From an uncultured bacterium (lineage in GTDB: Bacteria > Oederibacteriota > PGYV01 > Palsa-1178): 64,000 nt of DNA. The notes beneath the pieces were generated by a model, which saw nothing but the letters and a program-made list of their open reading frames with translations, was not told the DNA's origin and did no database searches. This document shows, piece after piece, positions 902 to 44,109 of the stretch. The stretch is taken from contig CALAOR010000081.1 of assembly GCA_937889595.1 (NCBI GenBank), positions 1 to 64,000 of the forward strand, read 5' to 3'. Both the position numbers and the translations under genes were made by a program. Within the stretch, counting starts at the first letter, position 1. Each line of letters opens with the position of its first letter.

Positions 902-3900
902 GTGAAAAAATGGTATTTTTTGTTTATTGCGGCGCTTGTATCTGCCGGATATTGTTTTTCCGCTATTACGGTTGATATCAATTCATATTACCCTCTGGCT
1001 TCGGGGCCGAAAATGCCGTTTCCACAGTTTAACAACTATACTGCCGGCGGACAGCAGACCTTATATACCTTGTCCGACACAAACCACCAGCCTGACGGTG
1101 TGGCGCACGCCGAGATGGAAAAATGGATACGCGACGCGTGGCAGATAGACGCCAACAGGTTCTCGACAAACGGTGTTGCGAATTATCAGCTCGCCGGAGG
1201 CGGACCTGCACCCGTTACACTCATTGATTATAACTCAACGTGCGGCGACTGTTCCGAGAGCGCCGGGTATTACATGCTGTCTGCCGCGCTTATGGGCGAT
1301 AAAAAAACTTTTGACGGCATATGGTTCAACCTTGTGGAAAACAACCGTCTTATGAACGCCTATAAATATTCCAATAACGTGTGGGTTTCGCGCGGAGTGG
1401 GGCGTGACGCTGAAGGGCTTCATTTTTTATCGGTATACGCGCCTCCGGGCGACTCTGCAACGGATGGCGACATGGATGTGGCCATGGCCATGCTCATCGC
1501 GTGGAAACAGTGGGGCGATTTTACCGGTTACTACGCGTTAGGCGGACAGGGGCCGGAAACAAATACGGGCGGATTAAAAGCCATAAAATACAAGGAAATG
1601 GCGCTGGCCTCGATGAGGTTTTTAGTCGCACTCGGTCTGCAGAACGCGCACGCAACTAATGTAAACGCATGGATGTCCGGCGATATAGGTTTTGATGGCT
1701 ATCATAAAGGCGGCCAGACATGGGCTGAAGTGACAAATTTTTCCATTCCGTCAGGCACAGGCGGAACTTGCGGTCCTGTAAATGGCCCGTTCTATAACGG
1801 CCCCAGGCCGGCAAGTTGGTATGATTATACAGGCCCATCCTATTTGAGGGCATTTGCCAACGCCCTCACCGTGAACGCGGACCCGATCGATATGGCATCT
1901 CCTTTGACCTGGTGCAGCGGCGCGTCAACCGGAAATTGGAACGTGACGCAGTTCCTCAAAGGCGCGGCAGCCAACGCGTGGCTGCAGGGACAGCTGAATT
2001 CATACACTTTTCCCGTGGCAGGAGACATGACTATAAACGGCGCGGCAGCCACTTTTAACGCGACGATAGATTCCGAAGGCGAGGATTTCCGCAGCATATG
2101 GAGGCACAGCCTTGACTACATGCTTTACGGCACGCCGAAGGACAGCTGGGATCCAACGGCACATTCCATAACCGTTGGCCTGGGAAACAGCTTTGACAAG
2201 GCCGGTTCGCTGAAAGTTTACAACTTCCTGAAAAATTACCCCACATGTTTACAACCCGGGACTTACTCACTGCATTTCGGGATCCCTGAAATGATAGCGG
2301 ATAATTATTCCACGGCAGGTGTGCCTGACGGGACCGACCACATCCCGTATCTGCTAGGGTCGGCGACGGCAGCGATAGTGATATCGCAGGATTTTCCGTT
2401 CATGGAAAGGTGGTTCAGGGAACTGTGCACGCTGTGGGACTCGGACACCAGCGGCACGGGATTACAGACCGGATACCTGGCATCGGCTCCGAAATATTTC
2501 CACGATTTTTTCAGGCTTTTGGGGCTCATGATAATAACAGGGAACTATGTAGACCCGATTAATTTTATCCCGCAGCCCAATATGAAAATATATAAAGCCG
2601 TGGATAAGACCTATGCTTTTACGGGGGATTATGTCACTTACTGGCTTAATTACCGTAATTACGGTTCGGTCGATGCCGCAAATGTTGTTATAACCGATAA
2701 TATCCCGCCTGATTTTACTTATGTTTCGGCAACAGACGCGCCGGGCGGGTCGCACAGCGGGGGCCAGACCGTGACATGGAACATAGGGCCCGTGCCGGGG
2801 CTGCATACGCAGAACTATAATACAACAGCAGGCGGGGTTACGCTGGTCGTGCAGGTGAAGAGCAATGCGGGGCAGGGGCGTTCCTGCAATATAGCAAGTA
2901 TTACCTGCTCTAACGGGACAGGGTGGACATCAAATGAGTTCCCGAACGAGGTATCATATATAATGAAAAGGAGCTGTGTCGATATAGTGCCTTCGGCGCT
3001 GACCATCACAAAGACAGCTTCGGTTAACTGGGCAAAGCCCGGGGATACAATAACTTACACGATTAATTACTGTGATTCGTCATCCGCGGGCTGGCTTGAA
3101 GGCGGCAGGTCGGGTGTTATATTCTCGATAGGTGCGGTAAATAATTTCGGGAATAATATGTTCACTTCACTGGTCATGCGCGGCATGCATTCAGCCTCAG
3201 AACCATGGATAGACTGGGGCAATTACAGGCTTTCATATTTTATTTACGGGCAGGGGCAGGGTTTTAACCTTCAACAGAACCGCGTTGAAGGAACCACGGG
3301 GATAATGGTTTCGAACGAAACGCTTGTACCGGGCTGCACGGACATGGTCCTCGGCACGGGATGCTGGGACCAGAGGCTTATCATACAAAATAATCCTTCG
3401 GTATCCATGCCCACCCAGATGCTGATGAAATTTTTTAATAACCTGCCCAACATGCATTACCCTGACGGCATATTGACTTATGGAGGCACCGGGACCCTGA
3501 ATCCGCTTTTATTCCAGCTTGATATATGGACAAATCCGGCCGTAACAACCCATGATTTCACAAAGGATTATTCAGCCCTGCCGAACGCGGGCGCTTATGC
3601 TTATAAAGATGCGGGCGACAATGCCCCGACATGCATACTTTACCCGATAGGTCCGGATTTTACTGATGGGAACCCATTAACTGCCGGGGTTACAGTTCCA
3701 AAAATAGACAGGGACTCATGCGACGGCACAAACCCTATGATAACAAATGTGCTTATAGAAGAATGGGACGGATACTGCTGGCGACGGGTATACGGCAACG
3801 GCCCCCAGCCCGGCAGGGAGCTTACAAACGTGTTTGTTGTGGATTCTTTGCCTACGAACCTTAATTGGGGCGGATTTATAGGGACCCCGGCCGGGACATA

Positions 3901-6583
3901 TACGGCAGGAACAAGGACCATAAAGTGGAACCTGGGTAATATGCTGGTGAACCAGTGCGGCACGGTATCGTACTGGGCAACGGCCGGAGGCGCATGTCCG
4001 TCTGCGGTGACGCTGTCAGCGGTCAACACCGCTTTTGTTTACGCGGACAATGAGTCGCCTGTCGCGGATTCGGCTACCGTGTCCATCAGCTGTTCCGCAC
4101 CGCCGCCTGCGCTCGCGCCTTCATCGATAACCAAGACGGCAAACGCTGCGAATTATAATACCAACGACCCGATAACATACACCATAGCCTATACCAATAT
4201 GAACGGCACGGTTGCTGATTCCGGGGCGGACCCGACAATACTAAGTTCCGGTGCGAATTGGACCAAAGACGGCGCGACCAATTACACTTTCAGCGGGGCC
4301 GGTATTACGCTTCCAAACGGCGCCGGGAAATACCACTACAATTATTCGAATGGGGTTAACGGCGTCATATACGCGAATTTTAATATTACAAATAATTCAT
4401 CCGACTTCGGAGTATATTTCAGGGGAACAATGGCATTTACGTTGAAGGTGCTGGGCGTAGGTGTGTCATGCCCCATAACCATATGGAACGGCACGACCGC
4501 GGTGGCCACAGGCAATGTTTCCTTCAGCTCGCTCACTGATGACATAAGGATCGACTTAAGCGGGGCCGCGGTAAAGGTATATATAAAGGACCATTCAGCA
4601 TCAACCTGGAATGTCCTGCCGACAATACAGTACCTGACCGCGCCGCAGACCGCAGGATACGCCGGTATTATTGACGGAACGCCTGCCGGAGGCAGCCCTA
4701 CGGGCAGCCACGTTGTGACAAAATGGTACACGTCCCTGGACTCGGCTTTCAATGTGCATGTTTATGACCCAATGCCGCCGGGGGTCGGTTTTGTTTCAGC
4801 ATCGAACAGCGGTTCGCTTGCCGCGGGAAGCGTGGATTATCCGCTGGTAGCCATGATGACCTATGGCCAGTCGCTTACATACACCTGGGCCGGCATAGTG
4901 ACCGCAACCTGCACGGATATTTATAATACCGCTTATGCCATACCGCAGGGCGTGACCTACACCGTAGGGGACCAGATGTCGGTGCATGTGAACTGCGTGG
5001 CAACAACGCCGACATTTACGCCTACAAGGACGCCCACGGCGACGTCAAGCGCAACGAATTCATTTACAAATACTTATACACGCACAAACACGCCTTCACC
5101 TACGTTCTCAGGCACCATGACTTACACGCCGTCAGCGTCACCGACGCCTTCCGCGACAAACTCGGTGTCCGTGACGTTCTCCCTGACTCCGACCATGACG
5201 GACACTTCCTCGCGCACAGCATCGCCAACGTATACGTATTCGGTTTCCGTCACCGTGACAAATACCTATACGAATACCAATTCGCCTACGTCTACGAGGA
5301 CCGTCAGCCCCACGCTGACAGTGACGGATACGCAATCGTCAAACACGCCGACATTCACGCTGACGTGGACAAATACGTTCACGGCATCGCCTACGTATAC
5401 GTCGACTTATACGCGGACAGCGTCGCCGACATCCACAAATACGGCGACAGCGACACAGACATTGACAAATACGGGAACGCAGACATATACGCGGACCAGC
5501 ACCGCTACAGTGACGGTGACGGGAACGGACGTGATATTCACCAGGACGATAACACCCACATGGACAAATACGTTTACATACACTGCTACACCCACGCAAA
5601 GCAGCACAGGGACAGGCACACCCACATGGACAAATACGTCCACATGGACCTATACGTTTACATACACTGCCACACCCACGCAAAGCAGCACCGGGACAGG
5701 CACGCCAACATGGACAAATACGCGCACGTATACGCCGACGCCGACCCAGAGCAGCACAGGGACAAACACATCCACAAATACGGCGACGAGGACTTCCACG
5801 GTAACGATGACAGTGACAAATACAAGGACGCAGACCGCGACGCCTACCGTGACGCGGACAATAACAGGAACGCCGACAGTAACGCCCACGCCCATGCCGT
5901 CGCCTGTAAACCTGGACATAAGCCTGGAAACATCAGGGGAGACCCCCAAAATAGGTGCGCTTGTCAAATACACGATAACGATAAAAAATAATACGGCATA
6001 CCCTGTTAATAACATAGCGGTATGGGACACGCTTCCGGTTGACATGGTGTTTGTATCGAATATTATCGGGACAACGACTTCGCAGACAGGCAATTACCTG
6101 TTCTGGGACCTGACAGATTATCTGTCGGGAACGCCTTTCACGCTTACTCCCGGCCAGCAGATAACAATAGAATTCACGGCAAGGATAGTGACCACGGACC
6201 CGTCGAGGCCGCTGCTGGTAAATACGGTAATGACGGATTACAATGACCCGTTTTATATCCCGTCAATAGGCAAACACCCACCGCTGTCGTCGGAACGGTC
6301 AATGTTCCCCATAGGAAAGCCGGTAGTGTTCCCGAACCCGTTTAACCTGGACACGAACAAAGAGGTTGTGTTTGACAATGTGGTGCCCGGCTCGCTCATA
6401 CAGATATTCACACTGTCCGGTGAAAGTGTAACGGCGATATATACGGGGATAAAAAGGGCGACATGGGACGGCAAGAACAGGAACGGCAGGGCAGTATCAG
6501 CCGGTATATATTTCTATGCGATAAGGAACCAGTCGAATGGGGATGTGAAGGCAGGGAAGCTGTTTGTGGTGAGAGGGAACTAA
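902..6583 (+). CDS. Giant secreted protein: GH8 glycosidase domain, DUF11 repeats, Thr/Pro stalk, FlgD-like C-terminal domain
   Basis: 1893 aa. A GTG start follows AAAGGA by about 11 nt, and residues 1-20 form a signal peptide (KKW, hydrophobic core, CFSA). Residues about 60-550 look like glycosyl hydrolase family 8: CSESAGYYMLSAALMGD with the likely acid Glu119, and ATDGDMDVAMAMLIA around Asp188-Asp190, which fits the family 8 signature except for one Val. GH8 enzymes hydrolyse beta-1,4-glucans, xylans or chitosan; the substrate cannot be told here. DUF11 segments begin near 557, 700, 1073 and 1668. A stalk of about 300 Thr/Pro-rich residues (1367-1667) precedes the last one. The tail (1805-1893) has the PNPF motif of FlgD-like sorting domains. 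Inferred: an enzyme displayed on or released from the cell surface. Confidence 0.9.
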   Translation: MKKWYFLFIAALVSAGYCFSAITVDINSYYPLASGPKMPFPQFNNYTAGGQQTLYTLSDTNHQPDGVAHAEMEKWIRDAWQIDANRFSTNGVANYQLAGGGPAPVTLIDYNSTCGDCSESAGYYMLSAALMGDKKTFDGIWFNLVENNRLMNAYKYSNNVWVSRGVGRDAEGLHFLSVYAPPGDSATDGDMDVAMAMLIAWKQWGDFTGYYALGGQGPETNTGGLKAIKYKEMALASMRFLVALGLQNAHATNVNAWMSGDIGFDGYHKGGQTWAEVTNFSIPSGTGGTCGPVNGPFYNGPRPASWYDYTGPSYLRAFANALTVNADPIDMASPLTWCSGASTGNWNVTQFLKGAAANAWLQGQLNSYTFPVAGDMTINGAAATFNATIDSEGEDFRSIWRHSLDYMLYGTPKDSWDPTAHSITVGLGNSFDKAGSLKVYNFLKNYPTCLQPGTYSLHFGIPEMIADNYSTAGVPDGTDHIPYLLGSATAAIVISQDFPFMERWFRELCTLWDSDTSGTGLQTGYLASAPKYFHDFFRLLGLMIITGNYVDPINFIPQPNMKIYKAVDKTYAFTGDYVTYWLNYRNYGSVDAANVVITDNIPPDFTYVSATDAPGGSHSGGQTVTWNIGPVPGLHTQNYNTTAGGVTLVVQVKSNAGQGRSCNIASITCSNGTGWTSNEFPNEVSYIMKRSCVDIVPSALTITKTASVNWAKPGDTITYTINYCDSSSAGWLEGGRSGVIFSIGAVNNFGNNMFTSLVMRGMHSASEPWIDWGNYRLSYFIYGQGQGFNLQQNRVEGTTGIMVSNETLVPGCTDMVLGTGCWDQRLIIQNNPSVSMPTQMLMKFFNNLPNMHYPDGILTYGGTGTLNPLLFQLDIWTNPAVTTHDFTKDYSALPNAGAYAYKDAGDNAPTCILYPIGPDFTDGNPLTAGVTVPKIDRDSCDGTNPMITNVLIEEWDGYCWRRVYGNGPQPGRELTNVFVVDSLPTNLNWGGFIGTPAGTYTAGTRTIKWNLGNMLVNQCGTVSYWATAGGACPSAVTLSAVNTAFVYADNESPVADSATVSISCSAPPPALAPSSITKTANAANYNTNDPITYTIAYTNMNGTVADSGADPTILSSGANWTKDGATNYTFSGAGITLPNGAGKYHYNYSNGVNGVIYANFNITNNSSDFGVYFRGTMAFTLKVLGVGVSCPITIWNGTTAVATGNVSFSSLTDDIRIDLSGAAVKVYIKDHSASTWNVLPTIQYLTAPQTAGYAGIIDGTPAGGSPTGSHVVTKWYTSLDSAFNVHVYDPMPPGVGFVSASNSGSLAAGSVDYPLVAMMTYGQSLTYTWAGIVTATCTDIYNTAYAIPQGVTYTVGDQMSVHVNCVATTPTFTPTRTPTATSSATNSFTNTYTRTNTPSPTFSGTMTYTPSASPTPSATNSVSVTFSLTPTMTDTSSRTASPTYTYSVSVTVTNTYTNTNSPTSTRTVSPTLTVTDTQSSNTPTFTLTWTNTFTASPTYTSTYTRTASPTSTNTATATQTLTNTGTQTYTRTSTATVTVTGTDVIFTRTITPTWTNTFTYTATPTQSSTGTGTPTWTNTSTWTYTFTYTATPTQSSTGTGTPTWTNTRTYTPTPTQSSTGTNTSTNTATRTSTVTMTVTNTRTQTATPTVTRTITGTPTVTPTPMPSPVNLDISLETSGETPKIGALVKYTITIKNNTAYPVNNIAVWDTLPVDMVFVSNIIGTTTSQTGNYLFWDLTDYLSGTPFTLTPGQQITIEFTARIVTTDPSRPLLVNTVMTDYNDPFYIPSIGKHPPLSSERSMFPIGKPVVFPNPFNLDTNKEVVFDNVVPGSLIQIFTLSGESVTAIYTGIKRATWDGKNRNGRAVSAGIYFYAIRNQSNGDVKAGKLFVVRGN
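5000..5905 (+). repeat. Thr/Pro/Ser-rich stalk-coding repeat region
   Basis: About 900 bp of low-complexity coding DNA built from ACG/ACA codons alternating with CCN, TAC, TGG and AAT. The longest internal repeat encodes TATPTQSSTGTGTPTWTNT, seen as two close copies near 5586-5725 and a shorter third just after. It encodes an extended linker between the enzyme/DUF11 part and the C-terminal domains. Long open frames on the opposite strand and in the +1 frame here are by-products of the codon bias. Confidence 0.9.
6148..6411 (+). repeat. 264-bp exact repeat, copy 2 (other copy 353-616)
   Basis: Second copy of the block described at 353-616, in the same coding frame at the end of the GH8 giant. 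Confidence 0.9.
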
Positions 6584-6647: not shown

Positions 6648-6676
6648 TTGACAATCAAAATCCCACGTGTTATCAT
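6648..6676 (+). promoter_or_regulatory. Sigma-70-type promoter for the solute-binding protein gene
   Basis: TTGACA at 6648-6653, 17-bp spacer, TATCAT at 6671-6676. Transcription would begin near 6683, leaving a leader of about 29 nt with an AGGAGGG site before the ATG at 6712. This excludes an in-frame GTG at 6667, which lies inside the promoter. Confidence 0.85.
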
Positions 6677-6711
6677 ATGTTTATTACATAAACAAATTCC
6701 AGGAGGGAAAA

Positions 6712-7992
6712 ATGGGAACAATTAAGAAAGCGGTTTCGTTGGTTGTTATTTTGTTGTTTGTTTTGACCGGGTGCGGAAATATTTTTGGGGCTAACGTTAC
6801 CCTGCGCTGCGCTTTTTGGGGCGATACAAGCGAGATAGGGATCATAAAACAATCCGTTGATTTGTTTAAAAAAGCAAATCCCGGTATCGACGTAAAACTC
6901 GAACGCCTTCCGGCTGGGGACCCCTATACGGAAAAGATACTTACCCAGATAGCGGGCGGCAACCCGGTGGATGTAATGTTTGTCAATGCGGAGCAGTTCT
7001 ATATTTACGCCAAGAAAAACATACTTCTTCCCTTAAATGATTATGTTGCAAAGGACAAAATGCCCATAGATAAGTTTTATCCAAAAATAATCGAGAAATT
7101 TACAGTTGACGGGAATTTTTATGTATTACCCAGGGACATAGCGCCAGTATGCGTTGTTTTTTATAATAAGGAAATTTTCAACAAGGCGGGGCTGAAATAT
7201 CCGGCGCCTGACTGGAACTGGGACCAGATGCGCGATATGGCTGTAAAGATGACCGTAAAAAATCCGGACGGAACCACAACATTCGGGTTCGCTGATGAAT
7301 GGGGTATATGGGAGCCTTTTGTGCTCTCCAACGGCGGAAAATTTGTTGACGACCTGAAGAAACCGGCAAAATGCCTGCTTGATTCTCCCGAGGCTTTGAA
7401 CGCTTATGAGTACAGGCAGGACCTGATGTATAAGTATAAGGTGATGCCTTCGCCTTCACAGCTCTCCGCCATGGGCGGAGTCGGGGCGTCGGACCTTTTC
7501 ATACAGGGCAAGGCGGCCATGTTCCTTTCGGGTATATGGAAAACCCCGTTCTTCCGCGAAACAATTAAGTTTGACTGGGACGCCACGGCATTTCCCAAGG
7601 GGCCCAAAGGGGGCAGGGGATACCTGATAAGCGGAGGCGGATACGCCATCTTAAAGACCTCAAAACATCCTGGAGAAGCATGGAAACTTTTAACTTTTTT
7701 AGCAGGCGAAGAAGGACAGAAAGCGCTTGCATTAACCGGACTTGCGCAGCCTGCTATCAAGGCAATCGCCGAATCACCGGCATTCCTCGATGGAAAGCCG
7801 CCTGTTTCGAAAAAATTCCTCCTGGACGCCGTAAACTACGGATGTGTCGCGCCCGATACGGACAAGTGGCAGGAATCAATGAATTCTTATTTGCAGCCCG
7901 CGCTTGACAAAGTATGGTCAGGGAATAAAAAGCCGGACGACGTTATACCAAAGGCAGTAAAGGAAATAAACACAAAATTACTTAATAAATAA
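6712..7992 (+). CDS. ABC-transporter extracellular solute-binding protein, family 1 (lipoprotein)
   Basis: 426 aa. The start is set by AGGAGGG 5 nt upstream and by the promoter position. Residues 1-21 form a lipoprotein signal with lipobox LTGC (Cys21), so the protein should be lipid-anchored in the envelope. The rest matches family 1 sugar-binding proteins of ABC importers: VDLFKKANPGIDVKLERLP near the N-terminus, DVMFVNAEQFYIYA, WNWDQMRDMAVKM, and the C-terminal FLAGEEGQKALA and ALDKVWSG segments. The ligand is probably an oligosaccharide or polyol, but this is not readable from sequence. No permease or ATPase gene is adjacent, so it is an orphan here and must use components encoded elsewhere. 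A stem-loop with a T-rich tail (7999-8040) is a weak terminator candidate. Confidence 0.92.
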   Translation: MGTIKKAVSLVVILLFVLTGCGNIFGANVTLRCAFWGDTSEIGIIKQSVDLFKKANPGIDVKLERLPAGDPYTEKILTQIAGGNPVDVMFVNAEQFYIYAKKNILLPLNDYVAKDKMPIDKFYPKIIEKFTVDGNFYVLPRDIAPVCVVFYNKEIFNKAGLKYPAPDWNWDQMRDMAVKMTVKNPDGTTTFGFADEWGIWEPFVLSNGGKFVDDLKKPAKCLLDSPEALNAYEYRQDLMYKYKVMPSPSQLSAMGGVGASDLFIQGKAAMFLSGIWKTPFFRETIKFDWDATAFPKGPKGGRGYLISGGGYAILKTSKHPGEAWKLLTFLAGEEGQKALALTGLAQPAIKAIAESPAFLDGKPPVSKKFLLDAVNYGCVAPDTDKWQESMNSYLQPALDKVWSGNKKPDDVIPKAVKEINTKLLNK

Positions 7993-8086: not shown

Positions 8087-8170
8087 TGCGGATAGAGGGA
8101 CTTGAACCCACATAGCCTTGCGGCCACTAGAACCTGAATCTAGCGCGTCTGCCAATTTCGCCATATCCGC
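8084..8170 (-). tRNA. tRNA-Leu (anticodon CAG)
   Basis: The minus strand folds as a class II tRNA: acceptor GCGGATA/TATCCGC, D arm with GCG...CGC, anticodon stem CTAGA/TCTAG with loop TTCAGGT (anticodon CAG, reading CUG), a long variable arm (GGCCGCAAGGC) and a T arm with TTCAAGT. Discriminator A and CCA are encoded. The T stem GTGGG/CCCTC contains one T-T mismatch at its second pair, which is unusual. Confidence 0.88.
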
Positions 8171-8226: not shown

Positions 8227-9652
8227 TGTCAATGCAAAATAAGAATGTCCGGTTTTCTGCAAAATAGAAATGTCCGGTTTTTCATATATATGCCTGAAAT
8301 GAATCCCCGGAATTCCACGGATGGTGCCTGCCGGGTTTATGCTTGGTTTTTCTTGCCAATCTTACTACTTTTTCGCTTTTAAAATCATCAACCTCTTTAG
8401 TTCTTAACTTCATGTCAATCTTTGAGTATTTAATAGGTTCAACTTTGTATTCAATGCGCATTTTTGAGTTTAATTTCTCCACTATGCTGACCTTGCGTCC
8501 TTTGAGCGCCAAAACTGTATCTAATTGGTACAAACTACGTTCATATGCAACCGTATAGTCATTCCTGACGATCCGGTCTGTCTTTATCGCCAGGATATTG
8601 TTCAGATCCTGTCCTTCGCTTAACGGCATATGCATGTCATCATCTTTCACCGGTCTCACACAAAACTTCCTGTTATGCTTTGGCAGATAGTATTCCCTTA
8701 AAAACTTGTTTGCCTCTTCCATCGTATTTATCTTGGCAAGCCTCATCTCTTTTATCAACCTGTCCTGATGAGTTCTAAATGACCGTTCTATCCTGCCTTT
8801 TGCCTGTGGGGAATTGGCATGGATTACTTCTATGCCAAGTTCCTTTAATGCCCTTTCAAATTGACTCATTGGTTTTTCGTTTCTAAGTTGTTCTTCTATC
8901 GTTGCTTCTTTCTGCGATTTGTACGTCGAATGCCTGTCTAAATACACTATTCTTGGCTTTCCGTACTTCTTAATATATGTTTTCATCAGTACCATTGCGG
9001 GTATCGTGCCTTCATAAGCAAAGAACTCCGCATGAACCCGCCCAGTTGCATCGTCTATGAAACTCATCAATACCATTTCAGGCCAGCGTCCCTCAAGCCA
9101 ATCATGATGGCTTCCGTCCAGTTGTTCCATCTCTCCATAACACGCTTTTCTTTCCCGCCACTGCCGGTGCTTACAGCCTTTTCTAACGGGCTCCCACAAA
9201 CCTACCGACATTAATATCGTTCTTAAACTTTCTCGGTTTATTGATATTTTTTCTATCTCCAAGAATTTTTCCTGAGCTAAAGTCAAACTGAAATCCCTGT
9301 ATCTTTCAGCATATAAATCTATAATTTGATCCTTCTTTTCTGCCTTAATCTTTTTATGAGATACTTTGCCTCTCAACCGGTGGATCAAACCTTCTTTGCC
9401 GCCTTCGGTTACTCTTTTTACAAGACGCCTTACTTGTCTTTCGCTTATCCCCAGGTTCTTCGCGGCTTCAATCTGTCTTATCTGTCCCGCCATAACTCTT
9501 TTTATTTCCTCGTACGTTTTTACCTCTTTTGTGCTCATTAAGTTGCTGTCCAATCCGGTCATGGCGCACCTCCAATACCGCTATGCTACCACAACCTCAG
9601 AATAGGACATTTCTATTTTGCATAAATAGGACATTATCACTTTGCGGTTACA
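8227..9652 (-). mobile_element. Complete insertion sequence, ISNCY/IS1202-like, copy 1
   Basis: 1426 bp. Ends are TGT...ACA with imperfect inverted repeats of about 50 bp; each end carries the motif GCAAAnTnAnAATGTCC twice. The end at 8227 starts TGTCAATGCAAAATAA and the end at 9652 (minus strand) starts TGTAACCGCAAAGTGA. It is flanked by an exact 16-bp duplication and holds one intact transposase gene, so it looks complete and recently active. From memory, IS1202-related elements make unusually long duplications, which fits. Confidence 0.9.
8282..9562 (-). CDS. DDE transposase, ISNCY/IS1202-like
   Basis: 426 aa, intact. GGAGGTG lies 4 nt before the ATG. Residues about 28-50 form a helix-turn-helix (AAKNLGISERQVRRLVKR). 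The RNase-H-like catalytic core shows Asp149 (QLDGSHHDWLEG), Asp209 (YLDRHSTYK) and Glu259 (NSPQAKGRIER), the expected DDE triad. The GSHHDWLEGR and HSTYKS strings are shared with the second copy at 42791 and fit the ISNCY-type group. The two proteins have the same spacing of catalytic residues but differ at many positions, so they are related elements rather than recent copies of one another. Confidence 0.93.
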   Translation of the reverse strand: MTGLDSNLMSTKEVKTYEEIKRVMAGQIRQIEAAKNLGISERQVRRLVKRVTEGGKEGLIHRLRGKVSHKKIKAEKKDQIIDLYAERYRDFSLTLAQEKFLEIEKISINRESLRTILMSVGLWEPVRKGCKHRQWRERKACYGEMEQLDGSHHDWLEGRWPEMVLMSFIDDATGRVHAEFFAYEGTIPAMVLMKTYIKKYGKPRIVYLDRHSTYKSQKEATIEEQLRNEKPMSQFERALKELGIEVIHANSPQAKGRIERSFRTHQDRLIKEMRLAKINTMEEANKFLREYYLPKHNRKFCVRPVKDDDMHMPLSEGQDLNNILAIKTDRIVRNDYTVAYERSLYQLDTVLALKGRKVSIVEKLNSKMRIEYKVEPIKYSKIDMKLRTKEVDDFKSEKVVRLARKTKHKPGRHHPWNSGDSFQAYI

Positions 9653-33910: not shown

Positions 33911-34606
33911 ATGAAGATTTCCGCTTTTTTTCCGGCTTACAACGAAGAACTTAACATAGTATCCCTTGCTGAAAAGACATCCAAAGTTTTATCCGAAGTC
34001 TGCGAGGACTACGAGGTAATAATCGTAAACGACGGGTCAAAGGATAATACCGCAGGCGTGTCGGCCGAGCTGGCAAAACGCGACAAACACGTGTGCGTTA
34101 TAAATCATGAGAAAAACAGGGGTTACGGCGCCGCGGTCAAGACCGGGCTGAACAGCGGAAAGTTTGAATGGGTATTTTTCACGGACGGCGACGGGCAATT
34201 TGACGTGATTGAGATCAAGAACCTTGTCGCGCTCACCGACAAATATGATTTTATCGTGGGCTACAGGATAAAACGGGCCGACCCGTTCCACCGGAAATTA
34301 AACGCGTTCATGTGGGGTACCATGGTGAAACTGCTGTTTAAGTTCCGGGTAAAAGACGTGGATTGCGCTTTCAAGCTTATGAAAAAAGAGATAATAGAAA
34401 AGGCAAAAGTGGAGTCTGAAGGCGCGCTTATATCGACGGAACTGCTGGCAAAAGCGATCAAAATGGGTTACAAAATAGGGGAGATAGGCGTGCATCATTA
34501 TCCGCGCACAGCCGGGACCCAGACAGGCGCGAAGATAGGGGTAATAGTGAAGGCGTTTGCGGAATTATTTAAATTATACGGGAAAATACAAAAATGGGGA
34601 AAATAG
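33911..34606 (+). CDS. Family 2 glycosyltransferase (dolichol-phosphate mannosyltransferase-like)
   Basis: 231 aa. GT-A fold signatures: FFPAYNEELNIVSLAEK, VIIVNDGSKDNTAG, NRGYGAAVKTGLNSG and the DxD-like TDGDGQFD. There are no long C-terminal membrane helices, so it is the soluble polyprenyl-phosphate type. It should load a sugar onto a polyprenyl phosphate for later transfer by membrane glycosyltransferases; the DUF2723 protein and the O-antigen-ligase-like protein in this window are possible users. TGGAGG lies 9 nt before the ATG. Overlaps the next gene by 13 nt. Confidence 0.92.
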   Translation: MKISAFFPAYNEELNIVSLAEKTSKVLSEVCEDYEVIIVNDGSKDNTAGVSAELAKRDKHVCVINHEKNRGYGAAVKTGLNSGKFEWVFFTDGDGQFDVIEIKNLVALTDKYDFIVGYRIKRADPFHRKLNAFMWGTMVKLLFKFRVKDVDCAFKLMKKEIIEKAKVESEGALISTELLAKAIKMGYKIGEIGVHHYPRTAGTQTGAKIGVIVKAFAELFKLYGKIQKWGK

Positions 34607-35562
34607 CGGCCCTTATATCAGCGCTGTCTTTTTTGTCTGTTGCCATATTCGGCTCAGGCGTGACCGGCGCCGATATACTCAAGGCAGATACCGGGGTCAG
34701 GGCCATCGGATTAGGCTCGGCGTATACGGCCGCGGGTAATGATGTGGAATCCATTAATTTCAACCCCGCGGGAATAGTTTTTGTAAGCGGCAGGGATGTA
34801 AAAGCGTATTATGTGAAGAATTATGCGGGTTCGCTGAATGTGGAGTTATATAATATTTCATTTGCACAGCCCCTGGAAACATCATTTTTGGAAGGTACGA
34901 TTGCCCTGGAAGCCACATACCTGGGCCTTCCGACAATATCAAACCCCGACGCGACAGATCCCGGAGTTTCGTTCAATGACCTTCTGATAAAAGCAGTTTA
35001 CGCCGTAAACGCGGCAAAACTCAGCTACATACCGTGGAGCGAATCAAAATACCTGAATTTGGGCATCGCGGCAGGTATGGTTTTTGAGCAACTCGGGACT
35101 TTCTCGGGTTCAAGTGTAATGTTCGACCTTGGTTCACAGTTTGTGCTGTATGACACGGGATTTATGTTCGGAGCCGCATTGCAGAACATAGGGACCCCGA
35201 TCAAATACATAAGCGAAGCATCGCCCCTGCCTCTGACGCTGCGCCTGGGCGCGTCTTACGATACAAGGATTGACAAACATAACATAATCCTGGTTTCCAT
35301 GGATTACATACAGGATTTTTATGATTACGCAAGGTTTGCGGCGGGTGTGGAAGACAACATTTTGAACCTGTTTTACCTCAGGGCGGGATATAATACCTCG
35401 ATAGACACAAGGAACGCGTCATACATATCTGCCGGGGCAGGCCTGACGGTCAAGCTGCTGGAAACCACTCTGGCGATCGATTATACTTTCAGGCTGCAGT
35501 TCTGGAACGGCTTTAACGGCAGCCAGCAGTCCCAGCTCGTGGGGATCGGCGCAAAGTTTTAA
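34594..35562 (+). CDS. PorV/PorQ-like outer-membrane protein
   Basis: 322 aa with a signal peptide (1-25). Typical N-terminal segment of the PorV/UPF0164 family: ADTGVRAIGLGSAYTAAGNDVESINFNPAG. The rest alternates beta-strands, consistent with a 14-stranded barrel, ending LVGIGAKF. In type IX secretion PorV helps deliver and modify cargo with a C-terminal signal; related proteins occur in phyla without a proven system. It is co-transcribed with the glycosyltransferase. Confidence 0.85.
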   Translation: MGKIAALISALSFLSVAIFGSGVTGADILKADTGVRAIGLGSAYTAAGNDVESINFNPAGIVFVSGRDVKAYYVKNYAGSLNVELYNISFAQPLETSFLEGTIALEATYLGLPTISNPDATDPGVSFNDLLIKAVYAVNAAKLSYIPWSESKYLNLGIAAGMVFEQLGTFSGSSVMFDLGSQFVLYDTGFMFGAALQNIGTPIKYISEASPLPLTLRLGASYDTRIDKHNIILVSMDYIQDFYDYARFAAGVEDNILNLFYLRAGYNTSIDTRNASYISAGAGLTVKLLETTLAIDYTFRLQFWNGFNGSQQSQLVGIGAKF

Positions 35563-35579: not shown

Positions 35580-36983
35580 CTATGCCAACAACAAATATTT
35601 TATAGGCAATTTTACTATATTATTTTCAACCAGGCTGATTTCCCTTGATCCTATTAATAAACCGTATACTGACGAAGATTTTTTCATCGTGCCGGGAATC
35701 TGATTGATATATTCTTTTGAAGCAGAGACTTCAATAGTGATTTTTGTTCTGTCGGGTCTTTTTATTATATAATCCGCGCTTCCTTCCGCAGAATCAAAAT
35801 ACATTTCTGCGCCAAAACTTCCTACAAAACACCTTCTAAAGGAAGCGGCCAGGACCTCTTCATATTTCCTGCCGGCAACCCTGCCAGGGACCGCACCTTC
35901 TAACAATGCTTCGCGAAAAAGCGGATGGGAAAATAATAGTTTCGGCGCTTTTCTGGTCTGATGATGCCTGCGGCCGTAACTTTTTACCGGAAAAATAAGC
36001 CCGCTCATTACAAAACCATCGATTAGCCCGTAAAGTGTGCGGTTATCCGCAAGTTTCAGACTGTCACTAAGTTTCTCAAGCGTAATTTTTTCAGATTCAG
36101 CTATAAGGCATGCAAGGCTGTACAATTTAGACAAAGCCTGGGCCTTGTATCCTTTCATGGCTGTAATATCCCGCACTATTACACTTTCAACAATGCTTTT
36201 TATGGCATTATTCATAAGGAGCGGTTCGTTTATGTGTTTGAAAACAGGCAGACCGCCGAATGACATGTAATTTTCAACAGCTTTTACCGGCAAGGCTGAA
36301 TAATACCTGTCAACCTCCGCCGATATATCCACAGCCTTTTTAAATATACTTTTTGCATCAACTGAAGAAAAAATAAAGGACGTATCCGGGGCTTTCCTGT
36401 CCGTACTTGCGCCGAATATCCTTGCAAATTCCCTGAAATGCAAAGGTAATATTTCGGTGAAGACCGCCCTTCTGCCGAGATCAGGGTTGATTTTGATTTT
36501 TAAGGCTGATGACCCTGTGGCTACAATCATCAGGTCGGTATTTGATTTGTTCCTGTCAAACATGCTTTTAAGGAACAGGCCCCAATTTTCGTCGTAATGA
36601 ACTTCATCAATGAGCAACAATGTTTTCCTCATCGGGCGTTCTGACTCAAAGGAGGCGTCGTCTTCCCACTTCTTTAAGAAGTCATTGAGATTGAATCCTT
36701 CAAGCATCAGCCTGCCGGCATCGATATACAGGGTTCTTATCCTTTTTTCAGAGGCTGCCGCAAATAATTGGGCAAGAAGGGTGCTTTTTCCAGTTCCGCG
36801 CAAACCGGTCAAGATGCTGATTTTTTCATTTTCGGACAATTTACCGGATAACAACCTTTCCAGCCTGGCACTGAGCACGCTAAAATCATCGCGTGTCGGA
36901 TATGGTTTTCCGGAAGGATCATAAATATGGCTGTCCATTAGCCTTTGAAGTCCTGCAATCCATAGCTTATAGAACTCATCCAT
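35580..36983 (-). CDS. AAA ATPase with DUF4143-like C-terminal domain
   Basis: 467 aa. Walker A is GLRGTGKSTLLAQL, Walker B LLLIDEVHYDENWG, and a sensor-like MIVATGSSALKI. The C-terminal half resembles DUF4143 proteins, with a winged-helix segment and a PD-(D/E)XK-like fold (FGAEMYFDSAEGSADYII...TKITIEVSASK). This large, mostly uncharacterised family is widespread and often mobile. ATG 36983 is chosen because AAAGGA lies 11 nt upstream; a GTG 9 nt earlier is too close to it. It stands alone with its own promoter and operator-like repeats. Confidence 0.87.
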   Translation of the reverse strand: MDEFYKLWIAGLQRLMDSHIYDPSGKPYPTRDDFSVLSARLERLLSGKLSENEKISILTGLRGTGKSTLLAQLFAAASEKRIRTLYIDAGRLMLEGFNLNDFLKKWEDDASFESERPMRKTLLLIDEVHYDENWGLFLKSMFDRNKSNTDLMIVATGSSALKIKINPDLGRRAVFTEILPLHFREFARIFGASTDRKAPDTSFIFSSVDAKSIFKKAVDISAEVDRYYSALPVKAVENYMSFGGLPVFKHINEPLLMNNAIKSIVESVIVRDITAMKGYKAQALSKLYSLACLIAESEKITLEKLSDSLKLADNRTLYGLIDGFVMSGLIFPVKSYGRRHHQTRKAPKLLFSHPLFREALLEGAVPGRVAGRKYEEVLAASFRRCFVGSFGAEMYFDSAEGSADYIIKRPDRTKITIEVSASKEYINQIPGTMKKSSSVYGLLIGSREISLVENNIVKLPIKYLLLA

Positions 36984-36999
36984 ATAAAACACCGTCCTT

Positions 37000-38801: not shown

Positions 38802-39362
38802 ATGGAGGGTTTGATACCAGTTGAAAATATTGCACAAAAGATATACCTGATTAGAGGGCAGAAGGTTATGTTGGACACCGATCTTGCTGTGTTTTATGGG
38901 GTGGAAGTTAAAAGATTGAATGAACAAATCAAAAGAAATATGGAACGGTTTCCTGAAAACTTTTGCTTTCAGTTAAACGAGCAGGAAAATGAGTCTTTGA
39001 GGCGCCAAATTGGCACCTCAAACTTGAAATCACAAAATGTGACTTCGCGTTTGAGGTCGCAAATTGCGACCTCAAAGCGCGGCGGGAGGCGGTATTTACC
39101 GTATGCTTTTACCGAGCATGGTGTTGTTATGCTTTCCAGTGTGCTTAGGAGCAGGAAAGCCGCACAAGTTAGTATTGCCGTGGTCAATGCATTTATCAAA
39201 ATGCGCGAGTATCTTGCGACTCACGGACAAATACTTGAAAAGCTTAAAAAATATGATGAGAACTTTGTGATAATCTTTGATGTACTAAAACAATTGACAG
39301 CCAAACCTAAAACCGCTACCGGCAAGTTTGGGTTTAAAGCCGGTACTGTTAAGCCGACATAG
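38802..39362 (+). CDS. ORF6N-domain protein with internal 9-residue repeats
   Basis: 186 aa. Residues 5-120 form an ORF6N DNA-binding domain (IRGQKVMLDTDLAVFYGVE, RFPENFCFQL, RRYLPYAFTEHGVVMLSSVL), found in phage antirepressor-like proteins and in bacterial chromosomes. Three tandem 9-residue units (LRRQIGTSN, LKSQNVTSR, LRSQIATSK) sit in the middle, encoded by near-palindromic DNA. A C-terminal helix follows (FIKMREYLATHGQILEKLKKYDE). AGGGGGG precedes the ATG. It probably binds DNA; the operator over its promoter suggests autoregulation. No other phage genes are nearby. Confidence 0.9.
   Translation: MEGLIPVENIAQKIYLIRGQKVMLDTDLAVFYGVEVKRLNEQIKRNMERFPENFCFQLNEQENESLRRQIGTSNLKSQNVTSRLRSQIATSKRGGRRYLPYAFTEHGVVMLSSVLRSRKAAQVSIAVVNAFIKMREYLATHGQILEKLKKYDENFVIIFDVLKQLTAKPKTATGKFGFKAGTVKPT
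38996..39076 (+). repeat. Three tandem 27-bp palindromic units inside the ORF6N gene
   Basis: Units at 38996-39022, 39023-39049 and 39050-39076. The third is a perfect 27-nt palindrome around AAATT (arms TTTGAGGTCGC/GCGACCTCAAA); the first is nearly perfect; the middle is degenerate. Each encodes nine residues in frame. Confidence 0.9.
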
Positions 39363-39741: not shown

Positions 39742-41418
39742 ATGAAAAAAATTATCTTGTATCTACTGCTAGTCATGCTTTTTTCTGCCGTAGTCTTTGC
39801 CAACAACTTATCGGAAATAACCACTTTTGGCACAGGCGCCTACCCAAGGGGCATTGCAGCCGCTGACTTAAACGGGAACGGAGTAAAGGAAATCATTGTC
39901 GCGAATTTCGGGGCGCAGACATTGATCGGACAGGACCCTGTAACCCCGGCAAATTCATCGATCTCAATATTTTCAAAGGATGGCGCAGGCTTAAAAAGCG
40001 TCGTTCAGCAGTCTGGAAAATCACCCAGGGGGATCGCGGCAGGCGACTTGAACAATGACGGCAAGGATGAATTCGTTGTATCAAACTATGATGATGGGAC
40101 AGTTACCGTATATAAAGGCAATGCGCCCATGACTTTAACTGCGGGAAAGCACCCTGTGGGTGTCGCGATCGGTGACGTCAATAATGACGGGCTCAATGAC
40201 ATAGCTGTTGCGGTGTATTCTGAGAACAAGGTTGTCCTGTTCCTGGCTGATGCCAAAGGCGGTTACACAAGATATGAAGCTTTGGTTCCGGGTTCGCCCA
40301 CGGACGTTGCAATAGGGGAGATAGGCGGAGCAAAAGTAATAGTCAGCGCCAATTACAGCGCGGCAAGCGTCAGCATATTAAGTTTTAACGGAACCTCCCT
40401 TGAAAAAAGAAACGACATAGCCGTTGGCGGCGGGCCTTGCAAGGTCAGGATAGCGGACGTAACCGGAGATCAGATAAATGACATCATAACCGCGAATTTT
40501 TATGATAACACAGTATCAGTTATACCTTCAGGCACGGGAAAAGCCGTCGCATACGCTTTGGGCGGGATAAGGCCTAACGGCATGACAATTGCTGACGTGA
40601 ATGGCGACAAACTAATGGATGTAATTGTGGCAAACAGGGATGATGACACGGTGGATATACTCCTGCAGAAAAACGGGGTTTTGGTCCTTACAAAAACGAT
40701 CAAGGTCTCGGACGATAAAGACAAAACTTTCGGCCCGGTGGAAGTTGTGGCCGGAGATTTTAACGGCGACGGGCTGACCGATATAGCCTTCACACATATG
40801 AGGACAAACTCGGTGAAAGTAATATACCAGCAGCTGCCAAACGCGCCTGCTGTCATATCATCGACGAATCCCAGCCAGGACGCCTGGTATGCCTCGACAA
40901 AAGCTTCATTTACATTATCAGCCGAGGATTTGAACGGGGTTGACGGGTATCTTTACACAATGTCAAAGGAAAAGGGCGCTTTTTCTCCGGCAACCGCAAA
41001 GCTTTCCGCGGCATCAGTCATAGAAATACCTTCCCTTGAAAGCGGCACATACTACTTCACGGCAGCCACAATTGACAAGGCGGGAAACACAGGCACGGCC
41101 GTGACCGAGTATAAGGTTAATATTACCGAGGAAATAAGCGGTAAAAACGTATATAATTTCCCCAACCCGTGCAGCGGTCCCACGACCTTAAGATTTGCCA
41201 TGTCAAAATCAGAAGATGTGAAACTGATCATCAGCGACGCCAACGGCAGCCTTGTATGGCACAAGGAACTACCCGCGACATCGGTTATCGCGGGGGTTAA
41301 CTATATAGTATGGAACCTGACAAATGACAACGGCGTCAAGGTATCAAACGGGGTTTATAATTTTAAGATAATTACCCCTGAAAAAACAATAAACAAGAAA
41401 ATAGCGGTTGTAAAATAA
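39742..41418 (+). CDS. Secreted FG-GAP/VCBS beta-propeller protein with FlgD-like sorting tail
   Basis: 558 aa. Signal peptide 1-21 (VVFAN). Seven repeats over residues 25-375 carry calcium-binding loops such as DLNGNGVKE, DLNNDGKDE, DVNNDGLND, DVNGDKLMD and DFNGDGLTD, typical of FG-GAP/VCBS propellers. An Ig-like domain follows (STNPSQDAWYASTKASFTLSA). Residues 470-558 form a FlgD-like tail: YNFPNPCSGPTTLRF...NGVKVSNGVYNFKII...KKIAVVK. Probably exported to the cell surface; ligand unknown. It is close upstream of a PorV-like gene. Confidence 0.9.
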   Translation: MKKIILYLLLVMLFSAVVFANNLSEITTFGTGAYPRGIAAADLNGNGVKEIIVANFGAQTLIGQDPVTPANSSISIFSKDGAGLKSVVQQSGKSPRGIAAGDLNNDGKDEFVVSNYDDGTVTVYKGNAPMTLTAGKHPVGVAIGDVNNDGLNDIAVAVYSENKVVLFLADAKGGYTRYEALVPGSPTDVAIGEIGGAKVIVSANYSAASVSILSFNGTSLEKRNDIAVGGGPCKVRIADVTGDQINDIITANFYDNTVSVIPSGTGKAVAYALGGIRPNGMTIADVNGDKLMDVIVANRDDDTVDILLQKNGVLVLTKTIKVSDDKDKTFGPVEVVAGDFNGDGLTDIAFTHMRTNSVKVIYQQLPNAPAVISSTNPSQDAWYASTKASFTLSAEDLNGVDGYLYTMSKEKGAFSPATAKLSAASVIEIPSLESGTYYFTAATIDKAGNTGTAVTEYKVNITEEISGKNVYNFPNPCSGPTTLRFAMSKSEDVKLIISDANGSLVWHKELPATSVIAGVNYIVWNLTNDNGVKVSNGVYNFKIITPEKTINKKIAVVK

Positions 41419-41580: not shown

Positions 41581-42504
41581 ATGAAAAAAACATTACTTGC
41601 CATCCTTTTAATATTAGCATCATTTGTGCCGGTGTTTGCCATTTTCGGGACAGCAGGCGGGGCCGCGCCTTTTTTGCGCACCGGAGCCGGAGCCAGGGCT
41701 TTGTCGCTTTCAGGCGCTTTTACCGCATACTATGATGACGCGACCTGCCCGTACTGGAACCCGGCTTCCATAGGACTGTTCAAACAGGCTTCCGTGTCCA
41801 GCATGTTTTCGTGGCTGACCCAGGAACGTTCCTACAGTTTTTTTAACGCGGCTTTCCCGAGCGAATACGGCAGCTTTGCGCTAAACCTCATAAACTTCTC
41901 GGCAGGGCAGATAGAAGGCAGACTGACCGACACATCGAATTTCTATACATTTACAGACTCGGAAAGCGCGTATTTCATGACATACGGCAGGCAGATATTT
42001 AAAAATATATGCGTGGGGCTTAACCTTAAATACATCCGCGAATCGCTTGACACCTACGGCGCGAACGGATTAAGCGCTGATTTGGGGGCGCTGATCAAGT
42101 TCAATGATTTTGTGTCTTTTGGCCTGGTATTCCAGGATTTGGCCGGCAATCTGCTGTGGACGACCGGGTTAAACGAGAAAATCCCACTGTTAATGAGGAT
42201 GGGAACCCTTTTAAGATTTATGGACGGCGATATAAAATGGTCGCTCGACGCGGAAGACAACGAGTTTGAAGGTGTTTCATTTAAATCCGGGATTGAAGCG
42301 GTCATGATAAAAATCATTTCTTTGCGCGCCGGGGTATCATACGGCGCGTCCAGCTATGCGTTTGATTACACTTTCGGAGGCGGATTAAAGTATGCCTTTG
42401 GCAACTTTATTTTCCAACTGGACTACTGTTTTATGAAAGAGGAATTCTACACGGTCTTTGAGGCGAACCATAAAATATCTCTGGATGTGTATTTTGATAT
42501 ATGA
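41581..42504 (+). CDS. PorV/PorQ-like outer-membrane protein, second copy
   Basis: 307 aa. Signal peptide 1-20 (VPVFA). Family hallmark near the N-terminus: GAGARALSLSGAFTAYYDDATCPYWNPASIGL. Alternating strands follow, with GLNLKYIRESL and SADLGALIKFNDFVSFGLVFQDL, and a final HKISLDVYFDI. Weakly similar to the 34594 protein, so not a recent duplicate. No clear Shine-Dalgarno site is visible because the palindromic element lies directly upstream. It may serve export of the FG-GAP protein encoded just before it. Confidence 0.85.
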   Translation: MKKTLLAILLILASFVPVFAIFGTAGGAAPFLRTGAGARALSLSGAFTAYYDDATCPYWNPASIGLFKQASVSSMFSWLTQERSYSFFNAAFPSEYGSFALNLINFSAGQIEGRLTDTSNFYTFTDSESAYFMTYGRQIFKNICVGLNLKYIRESLDTYGANGLSADLGALIKFNDFVSFGLVFQDLAGNLLWTTGLNEKIPLLMRMGTLLRFMDGDIKWSLDAEDNEFEGVSFKSGIEAVMIKIISLRAGVSYGASSYAFDYTFGGGLKYAFGNFIFQLDYCFMKEEFYTVFEANHKISLDVYFDI

Positions 42505-42702: not shown

Positions 42703-44109
42703 TGTAGTCGCAAAGTGGTAATGTCCTATTTGTGCAAAGCAAGAATGTCCTAATCCAGTTATGTTAGCATTGTAGGTATGGAGGTGCTACATGACAGAAA
42801 AGGACGGGTATTTAATGGGAACTATAGACAGACAGAAACTGAAAGTAATATCAGTGGTAGTTGAAAAGAAAATGAAACAATGGGAAGCTGCGGAGAAGTT
42901 AGTAATAAGTGAAAGACAGATCAGGCGATTGGTAAAAAGGTACAGGAAATATGGTGACAAAGGACTGGTTCACCAGTTAAGAGGACGCGAAGCGTCCAAC
43001 AAGATAAGCAAAGAAATAAGAGATAAGGTCGTGGATTTGTATTCGGAAAAATATAAGGGATTTGGTCCTACGTTGGGGCAAGAAAAGATCGTTGAGATTG
43101 AAAAGGTATGTATGAGCAGAGAGAGTTTCAGACATGTTTTGCTTGAAGCCGGGCTGTGGGAATCAAGCAGAAAATCTAAAAAGCACCGGCAATGGCGCGA
43201 ACGTATGAAATACAAGGGCGAGATGGTTCAGATGGACGGAAGCCATCATGATTGGCTTGAAGGACGTGGGCCGTGGCTGGTGTTAATGGGATATATTGAT
43301 GACGCAACAGGTGTTGTGTATGCGGAGTTCCATGATTACGAAGGAACAAAACCGGCAATGATAAGCTTCAAAGGTTATATAAAGAAGCACGGAATACCAA
43401 TGAAACTGTACCTAGATAAGCATAGTACATACAAATCGACAGAAAAAGAAACTGAGGAAGAACAACTGGCTGGTGAAAGAGCACAAAGTCAGTTTGAAAG
43501 GGCTTTATATACTATTGGGGTTGAAATCATACATGCAAATTCACCACAAGCTAAAGGCCGTATAGAACGATTGTTCAAAACTTTTCAAGATAGGGTAATA
43601 AAAGAGATGAGACTAGCAGGAGTTAAGAGCAAAGATGAAGCAAACGAATTTTTGCGTTGGTACTTGCCTGTTTTCAACCGGAAATTCTCAGTAGAACCAG
43701 CAGCAAGCCAGGACATGCATCGTGAAGTTGAATCGTGGGATGAACTGAATAATGCGCTTACAATCAGAACCGATAGAACTGTGAGAAATGATTATACAAT
43801 TTCATTTAAAGGTAAGATGTACCAATTAAAAACTGCTCTGGCTTTGAAAGGCAGGAAGATTACAGTTGTCGAACTGTTGAACGACAGAATGCGGTTGGAA
43901 TATGGTTCTGAACGAATAGAGCATTGGATGATAAATCCCCGGCCAAAGGTTAAAATAACCAAAATTAAGGTTAAAAAGCTGAGCATATTTAGACCGGTGA
44001 AGCCGGCCAAGAACCATCCATGGCGAAGCGGAATGAATGACCATATGGCAATATAAAATAGGACATTCTTGCTTTGCAGAGAATAGGACATTTTAGCTTT
44101 GCATTGACA
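42703..44109 (+). mobile_element. Complete insertion sequence, ISNCY/IS1202-like, copy 2
   Basis: 1407 bp, TGT...ACA ends with imperfect inverted repeats. Left end TGTAGTCGCAAAGTGGTAAT; right end (inward) TGTCAATGCAAAGCTAAAAT. Both ends carry the GCAAA...AATGTCC motif twice. Flanked by a 15-bp duplication. The promoter-distal transposase end faces the next gene, as in copy 1. Confidence 0.9.
42791..44056 (+). CDS. DDE transposase, ISNCY/IS1202-like
   Basis: 421 aa, intact. GGAGGTG lies 5 nt before the ATG. Helix-turn-helix near 31-50 (EAAEKLVISERQIRRLVKR). Catalytic Asp149 (QMDGSHHDWLEG), Asp209 (YLDKHSTYK) and Glu259 (NSPQAKGRIER) align exactly with the transposase at 8282. C-terminal tail PAKNHPWRSG matches the RHHPWNSG tail of copy 1. 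Confidence 0.93.
   Translation: MTEKDGYLMGTIDRQKLKVISVVVEKKMKQWEAAEKLVISERQIRRLVKRYRKYGDKGLVHQLRGREASNKISKEIRDKVVDLYSEKYKGFGPTLGQEKIVEIEKVCMSRESFRHVLLEAGLWESSRKSKKHRQWRERMKYKGEMVQMDGSHHDWLEGRGPWLVLMGYIDDATGVVYAEFHDYEGTKPAMISFKGYIKKHGIPMKLYLDKHSTYKSTEKETEEEQLAGERAQSQFERALYTIGVEIIHANSPQAKGRIERLFKTFQDRVIKEMRLAGVKSKDEANEFLRWYLPVFNRKFSVEPAASQDMHREVESWDELNNALTIRTDRTVRNDYTISFKGKMYQLKTALALKGRKITVVELLNDRMRLEYGSERIEHWMINPRPKVKITKIKVKKLSIFRPVKPAKNHPWRSGMNDHMAI

What the first reader, a model, noticed from the sequence alone, without database searches (positions are those of the whole stretch)
902..6583. GH8-like glycosidase fused to DUF11 repeats, a 300-residue Thr/Pro stalk and a sorting-like tail
The N-terminal 550 residues carry the GH8 acid motif (CSES, Glu119) and a near-complete GH8 signature (ATDGDMDVAMAMLIA). 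Downstream are several DUF11 domains, a very long Thr/Pro stalk and a FlgD-like tail. It looks like a cellulosome-free way to display a polysaccharide hydrolase far from the cell surface. I do not know of a described protein with this arrangement.
Basis: partly seen in the sequence, partly recalled or inferred. Interest (0 to 1): 0.7.

Follow-up and report, generated by a model that had tools for sequence, protein, structure and literature searches.

The report
Stalked surface cellulase-like enzyme
A little-known bacterium makes a very large exported protein whose head is a divergent member of a known cellulose- and xylan-cutting enzyme family, held out on a long threonine-rich stalk and ending in a tag that resembles the export signal of a secretion system so far described mainly in the Bacteroidota and their relatives.

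Summary
ORF 902-6583 (1,893 aa) has a signal-like start, a GH8 head, DUF11 domains (two with large insertions), a 335-residue Thr-rich stalk, another DUF11 and an Ig-like tail. GH8 homology is firm by profile comparison (99.9%; CelA E 3e-13), though weak for this member alone (24.3 bits, cut-off 24). The head belongs to a clade seen only in its phylum (Goldbacteria/FCPU426; 14 of 384 genomes). In 17 of 17 members the column of the usual catalytic base, Asp278 of CelA, holds Glu. The tail resembles a type IX secretion sorting domain more than FlgD: its model fits PorZ and PorU best, dozens of proteins share it, and the genome has SprA-, PorV- and PorU-like proteins but no detected GldL/GldM motor. 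Tandem copies have heads 44-52% identical but tails 83-98% identical, pointing to homogenisation of the display module. Fold prediction of the head failed and no activity is shown.

The parts
902..961 (+). signal-peptide-like N-terminus, residues 1-20, GTG start
   Evidence: read by eye from the translation; no signal-peptide program was available
962..2581 (+). GH8 head, about residues 21-560
   Evidence: PF01270 24.3 bits against cut-off 24 when scanned alone; profile to CelA 1cem E 3.3e-13; hhalign against canonical GH8 of the phylum 99.9%, E 4.8e-34
1256..1258 (+). Glu119, aligned with the catalytic acid Glu95 of CelA
   Evidence: invariant in 17 of 17; alignment to 1cem, and 1kwf shows Gln there
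1463..1471 (+). Asp188 and Asp190 (Asp188 aligned with Asp152 of CelA)
   Evidence: invariant; alignment; CelA numbering is chain index + 32, recalled and consistent for three residues
2081..2083 (+). Glu394 at the column of CelA Asp278, the GH8a catalytic base
2585..2908 (+). first DUF11 domain
   Evidence: (562-669)
2999..4126 (+). second DUF11 domain split by an insertion of about 230 residues
   Evidence: insertion without a PDB sequence match; borders approximate
4127..4966 (+). third DUF11 domain split by an insertion of about 170 residues
   Evidence: no convincing PDB sequence match; borders approximate
4967..5971 (+). Thr-rich stalk, residues 1356-1690, no Pfam match
5972..6301 (+). 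last DUF11 domain
   Evidence: 36.4 bits
6302..6583 (+). Ig-like T9SS-type C-terminal domain and stop codon
3..788 (+). stalk end, DUF11 and C-terminal domain of an upstream tandem copy cut by the contig end
   Evidence: 92.6% DNA identity to 5790-6583
4988..6583 (+). tract near-identical with the tandem copy (homogenised display module)
   Evidence: 92.5% DNA from 4988 against the C75 copy over 133 bp; 92.6% to the upstream copy from 5790 on; the part between is not covered by either contig
6667..7992 (+). sugar ABC importer substrate-binding protein, next gene downstream
   Evidence: SBP_bac_1 170 bits; relative beside the GH8 gene in 1 of 14 other loci

Best explanation
The gene encodes an exported glycoside hydrolase of family GH8, most likely an inverting endo-beta-1,4-glycanase acting on cellulose, mixed-linkage glucan or xylan. 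Steps: (1) an N-terminal signal takes it to the periplasm (inferred). (2) The C-terminal Ig-like domain is recognised by a SprA/PorV-type translocon and the protein crosses the outer membrane (components shown, transport inferred). (3) The Thr-rich stalk, possibly O-glycosylated, and the DUF11 domains hold the head away from the cell (inferred). (4) Glu119 protonates the leaving group and Glu394, in place of the usual Asp, activates water (columns shown, chemistry inferred). (5) Oligosaccharides enter through ABC importers (weak inference). Tandem copies keep different heads, while recombination homogenises the tail and, in two of three genomes, the stalk too.
For: GH8: (17 of 17 members match PF01270 at E <= 1, best E 1.1e-11). 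Clade: (100/100). Glu column: 17 of 17, against 8 Asp and 1 Asn in 9 canonical GH8 rows; a tenth, L039, has Asn, read by eye from its sequence printed. Tail: PorZ E 2.1e-5; PorZ Z 9.8, PorU Z 9.6, best FlgD 7.6. Machinery: SprA-like 186 bits, E 5.7e-55; SprA hits in 40 of 45 genomes of the phylum and 0 of 14 controls at E <= 1e-10; PorV family 31 genes over the cut-off; C25 peptidase E 7e-42 with a sorting tail; 14 of 38 PorV-family genes start within 600 bp downstream of a tail on the same strand, 0.24 expected. Homogenisation. Goldbacteria genomes carry GH5/8/9/44 cellulases (PMC7031533, passages).
Against: The scan of the whole ORF listed no PF01270 hit; alone the domain is 0.3 bits over the cut-off and only residues 116-206 align. 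The head model failed. GldL and GldM were not found, and the SprA-like protein is 14 bits under its cut-off. No PorV-family gene pair was found at the window's GH8 gene. The sugar-binding protein neighbour recurs in only 1 of 14 other loci. The tail model has mean pLDDT 63, and a Z under 10 for an Ig-like sandwich is not specific by itself.
Confidence: 0.7

Rival explanations
1. The head is a catalytically dead GH8 relative that serves as a carbohydrate-binding adhesin, the Asp-to-Glu change at the base column marking loss of catalysis.
For: The base column differs from Asp in all 17 members; the protein is built like an adhesin, with DUF11, stalk and tail; the genome has other GH8 proteins, one with Asp at that column.
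Against: Glu119, Asp188, Asp190, Glu394 and Arg397 are invariant in 17 of 17, which suggests selection on a working site; Glu is a carboxylate; in GH8 the base is known to differ in position between subfamilies (PMC5407803 and PMC6173055, passages).
Confidence: 0.2
2. The tail is a plain FlgD-like structural Ig domain and the protein is exported or anchored by another route.
For: FlgD_ig also scores on the upstream copy's tail (22.1 bits, cut-off 27); FlgD chains are among the Foldseek matches; no GldL/GldM.
Against: PorZ and PorU C-terminal domains rank first by both aligners; tails lie directly upstream of PorV-family genes 14 times with 0.24 expected and 0 in both controls; SprA-like protein present.
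Confidence: 0.15
3. The near-identical tails of tandem copies are assembly artefacts.
For: Many contigs break inside the stalk, a repeat.
Against: The copies are not identical (92.6% DNA in the window, 83% aa in G013), both copies lie on one contig in G004 and G013, and the pattern recurs in three genomes with different tails.
Confidence: 0.07

Closest known systems
GH8 endoglucanase CelA of Acetivibrio (Clostridium) thermocellus, 1CEM (GH8a)
   Same: profile match over three collinear stretches, acid Glu95 and Asp152 conserved
   Different: Glu instead of base Asp278; insertions; CelA is a cellulosomal dockerin enzyme (recalled), this one a stalked tail-bearing protein
Bacillus-type GH8 chitosanases and glucanase (7CJU, 1V5C, 5XD0)
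   Same: best single-sequence PDB matches, E 1.1e-5 to 2.7e-4
   Different: 5XD0 has Asn at the base column; a base Glu in an inserted loop of GH8b is recalled (Adachi 2004, not read)
T9SS cargo glycoside hydrolases of Bacteroidota (such as the Flavobacterium johnsoniae chitinase ChiA, seen only as a reference title)
   Same: sorting domain of the T9SS kind on a secreted polysaccharide hydrolase
   Different: host outside the phyla listed for T9SS in PMC11285876 (passage); DUF11 plus long Thr-rich stalk; no GldL/GldM found
Type B cargo with SprF-like shuttle encoded directly downstream, F. johnsoniae (PMC12618676, passages)
   Same: cargo and shuttle as neighbours, as in 14 tail/PorV pairs here
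   Different: here the neighbour is of the PorV/PorQ family, and the window's GH8 gene has no such neighbour

Membership tests
GH8 (PF01270) | sequence similarity above the curated cut-off | tested here: met
   24.3 bits, cut-off 24, domain alone; 17 of 17 members match at E <= 1; 29.1-37.5 bits in four other near-complete proteins; no hit listed for the whole window ORF
GH8 (PF01270) | catalytic acid Glu in the SEGxGY region | tested here: met
   Glu119 invariant
GH8 (PF01270) | (alpha/alpha)6 barrel | tested here: inconclusive
   AlphaFold2 model pLDDT 30.9 with four sequences
GH8a | Asp at the CelA Asp278 position as base | tested here: not met
   Glu in 17 of 17; definition from PMC5407803 (passage)
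GH8b | Asn at that column and base Glu elsewhere | tested here: not met
   column holds Glu; the definition is recalled, with Asn seen in 5XD0
GH8 | beta-1,4-glycan hydrolysis with inversion | not testable with these tools
   needs an assay
T9SS cargo | C-terminal Ig-like sorting domain | tested here: met
   upstream copy of the tail (97% identical over 95 residues) 26.6 bits against TIGR04183 cut-off 23; window tail itself below the Pfam cut-off; fold match to PorZ/PorU
T9SS | SprA/Sov translocon in the genome | tested here: inconclusive
   2,131-aa protein, E 5.7e-55, 186.3 bits against cut-off 200; 3 of 45 genomes over the cut-off, 40 of 45 at E <= 1e-10
T9SS | PorV-family shuttle | tested here: met
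   31 genes over the NF033709 cut-off; none of six scanned reaches the PorV or PorQ equivalog cut-offs
T9SS | GldL/GldM motor | tested here: not met
   no hit at E <= 1; divergent motors could be missed
DUF11 protein | PF01345 domains | tested here: met
   74.4 bits, five stretches

The most novel reading that the evidence does not exclude
A GH8 lineage confined to one candidate phylum has replaced the family's catalytic base Asp by Glu and is displayed by a motor-less or divergent T9SS-like route, with dozens of PorV-family shuttles, in a phylum outside the FCB group; recombination keeps one shared display module alike under diverging catalytic heads.
Probability: 0.45. Interest if true: 0.7.

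Novelty: new variant of a known kind. Interest (0 to 1): 0.5.

Why it matters
A Glu at the base column gives a direct test of how GH8 tolerates a change of its base, whose place is called less clear than that of the acid (PMC6173055, passage). A T9SS-like export route in Goldbacteria would widen a system that a 2024 paper lists only for Bacteroidota and possibly other FCB phyla (PMC11285876, passage), and would suggest how these uncultured cellulose degraders hold their enzymes. The paired heads on homogenised display modules are a natural experiment in modular enzyme display.

Tried and rejected
Structure of the head: AlphaFold2 with the window and L023-L025 gave pLDDT 31, not used. To deepen the alignment I scanned viral contigs twice: 1 and 2 loci, fragmentary or distant, not used. 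Insertions in the DUF11 domains: no usable PDB sequence match. Spread outside the phylum: none in 72,556 plasmid records and none among the genomes outside the phylum in the 384 searched. The genome-contig scan gave 3 loci, all with the contig lengths of genomes already in the set (G001, G011, G006). G009 contig C24 seemed to hold two copies, but its two ends share the same stretch, so I did not count it as a tandem pair. A 294-bp 100% match is my own overlapping extraction of the same DNA and was ignored. Cellulosome membership: no dockerin among the Pfam hits. The taxonomy look-up for Candidatus Goldbacteria found no such name. Papers: searches listed no report of this GH8 lineage or of a T9SS in Goldbacteria; this covers only the open-access library held, and most listed papers were seen as titles and abstract starts only. 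PMC10202324, PMC13363691 and PMC4793230 were searched for terms and gave little that is used here.

Full report
What is there. ORF 902..6583 (+) encodes 1,893 aa. Pfam finds five DUF11 stretches and a weak CHU_C tail. Scanned alone, the first 563 residues match GH8 at 24.3 bits, cut-off 24, over residues 116-206; the scan of the whole ORF did not list it. Single-sequence search of the PDB finds only GH8 enzymes at E below 0.01: four distinct sequences, best E 1.1e-5. The profile of 17 relatives finds CelA at 3.3e-13 in three collinear stretches, and hhalign against six canonical GH8 sequences of the phylum gives 99.9%, E 4.8e-34, 366 columns. I regard GH8 homology as settled and the fold as untested here (pLDDT 31).

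Active site. Glu119 aligns with CelA Glu95 (the entry 1kwf has Gln there), Asp188 with Asp152, and Glu394 with Asp278. At that last column all 17 members have Glu, followed by Asp or Thr, then Phe or Leu, then Arg, while the nine canonical GH8 rows of the phylum in the alignment have Asp (8) or Asn (1); a tenth, L039, has Asn by eye from the sequence printed. Asp395, the neighbour, is Thr in one member, so Glu394 is the better candidate for the base. Papers describe subdivision of GH8 by the place of the base (PMC5407803, PMC6173055, passages). The family therefore sits in GH8 but meets neither the GH8a nor the GH8b feature.

Spread. The clade is one side of a 100/100 branch against ten canonical GH8 rows of the same phylum (two truncated members of the 17 were left out). 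Of 384 genomes, 14 have it at E <= 1e-20, all in the phylum; of the 14 genomes of the order, counting the window's own, 11 have it. One of the 14 matching genomes, G044, has only a partial match of 88 bits. PMC7031533 treats FCPU426 as Goldbacteria, with Firestonebacteria and Elusimicrobia as nearest neighbours, and reports GH5/8/9/44 cellulases in most Goldbacteria genomes (passages).

Tail and export. The tail recurs in the genome in 50 matches at E <= 0.01, and the tail part of the PorU model in 50; merged, 73 places. The predicted tail (mean pLDDT 63; blocks of 76-83 over residues 41-100) best fits the C-terminal domains of PorZ and PorU, ahead of FlgD. A 2,131-aa SprA-like protein (E 5.7e-55, 186 bits, cut-off 200), a C25 peptidase with a sorting tail and 38 PorV-family genes, 31 over the cut-off, are present. 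SprA hits occur in 40 of 45 genomes of the phylum. GldL and GldM were not found. Fourteen of 38 PorV-family genes begin within 600 bp downstream of a tail on the same strand; 0.24 are expected by uniform placement, and both controls (tail downstream of the PorV gene; opposite strand) gave 0. So the route works like a T9SS; I do not file it as a full T9SS because the motor was tested and not found.

Tandem copies. In G004, G013 and the window's genome, heads of the two copies are 52%, 52% and 44% identical (for the window's genome the second head is on contig C75). The last 205 residues are 98%, 83% and 92% identical within a genome (in the window's genome the second tail is the piece at 3-788). 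Tails between less related genomes are 36-51%; closer relatives are higher (G013/G005 87-94%, G006/G011 82%, G000/G001 60%). The G004_A head is 78% identical to that of G006 but its tail only 43%. In G004 identity jumps from about 45% to 98% near the stalk start. In the window's genome DNA identity to the C75 copy rises to 92.5% at 4988, in the first bases of the stalk. In G013 the rise comes only near the end of the stalk (DNA identity 82% from about residue 1310 of the first copy). C75 and C81 are probably two halves of one tandem locus broken in the stalk; this is inference.

Reading. A stalked, exported GH8 glycanase with a changed base residue, one of a pair with a shared display module. 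GH8 homology and export are well supported; the exact route and the catalytic chemistry are inferred. It is a new variant of known kinds, not a new category.

Noticed in passing
window 39742-41418 and 41581-42504; genome-wide pairs listed: Genes for proteins with a T9SS-type tail are followed directly by a PorV/PorQ-family gene, 14 times in the genome against 0.24 expected. A further pair seen by eye at L080 (2418-3815 and 1476-2402, minus strand) was not in the tail list, so the count is a lower bound.
   Followed up: partly
L035:4759-11151 (G000:C76): SprA-like 2,131-aa protein in a phylum not in the list of T9SS phyla given in PMC11285876; SprA hits in 40 of 45 genomes of the phylum.
   Followed up: partly
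L035:18072-20000: A PorV-family barrel fused to an OmpA domain; several other PorV hits lie in ORFs of 500-800 aa and may be alike.
   Followed up: no
window 34594-35562: A second PorV-family gene in the window (113.9 bits, cut-off 90), next to a family 2 glycosyltransferase gene.
   Followed up: no
window 8282-9562 (-) and 42791-44056 (+): Two transposase-like ORFs with helix-turn-helix and, in one, an integrase core match; the first lies just beyond the sugar-binding protein gene and a tRNA (8087-8170, minus strand).
   Followed up: no
window 38802-39362 and 35580-36992: An ORF6N phage-type gene and an AAA_14/DUF4143 ATPase gene, possibly a small mobile insertion.
   Followed up: no
residues 700-1355 of the ORF (window 2999-4966): Two DUF11 domains are split by insertions of about 230 and 170 residues without a database match; they could be carbohydrate-binding.
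   Followed up: partly
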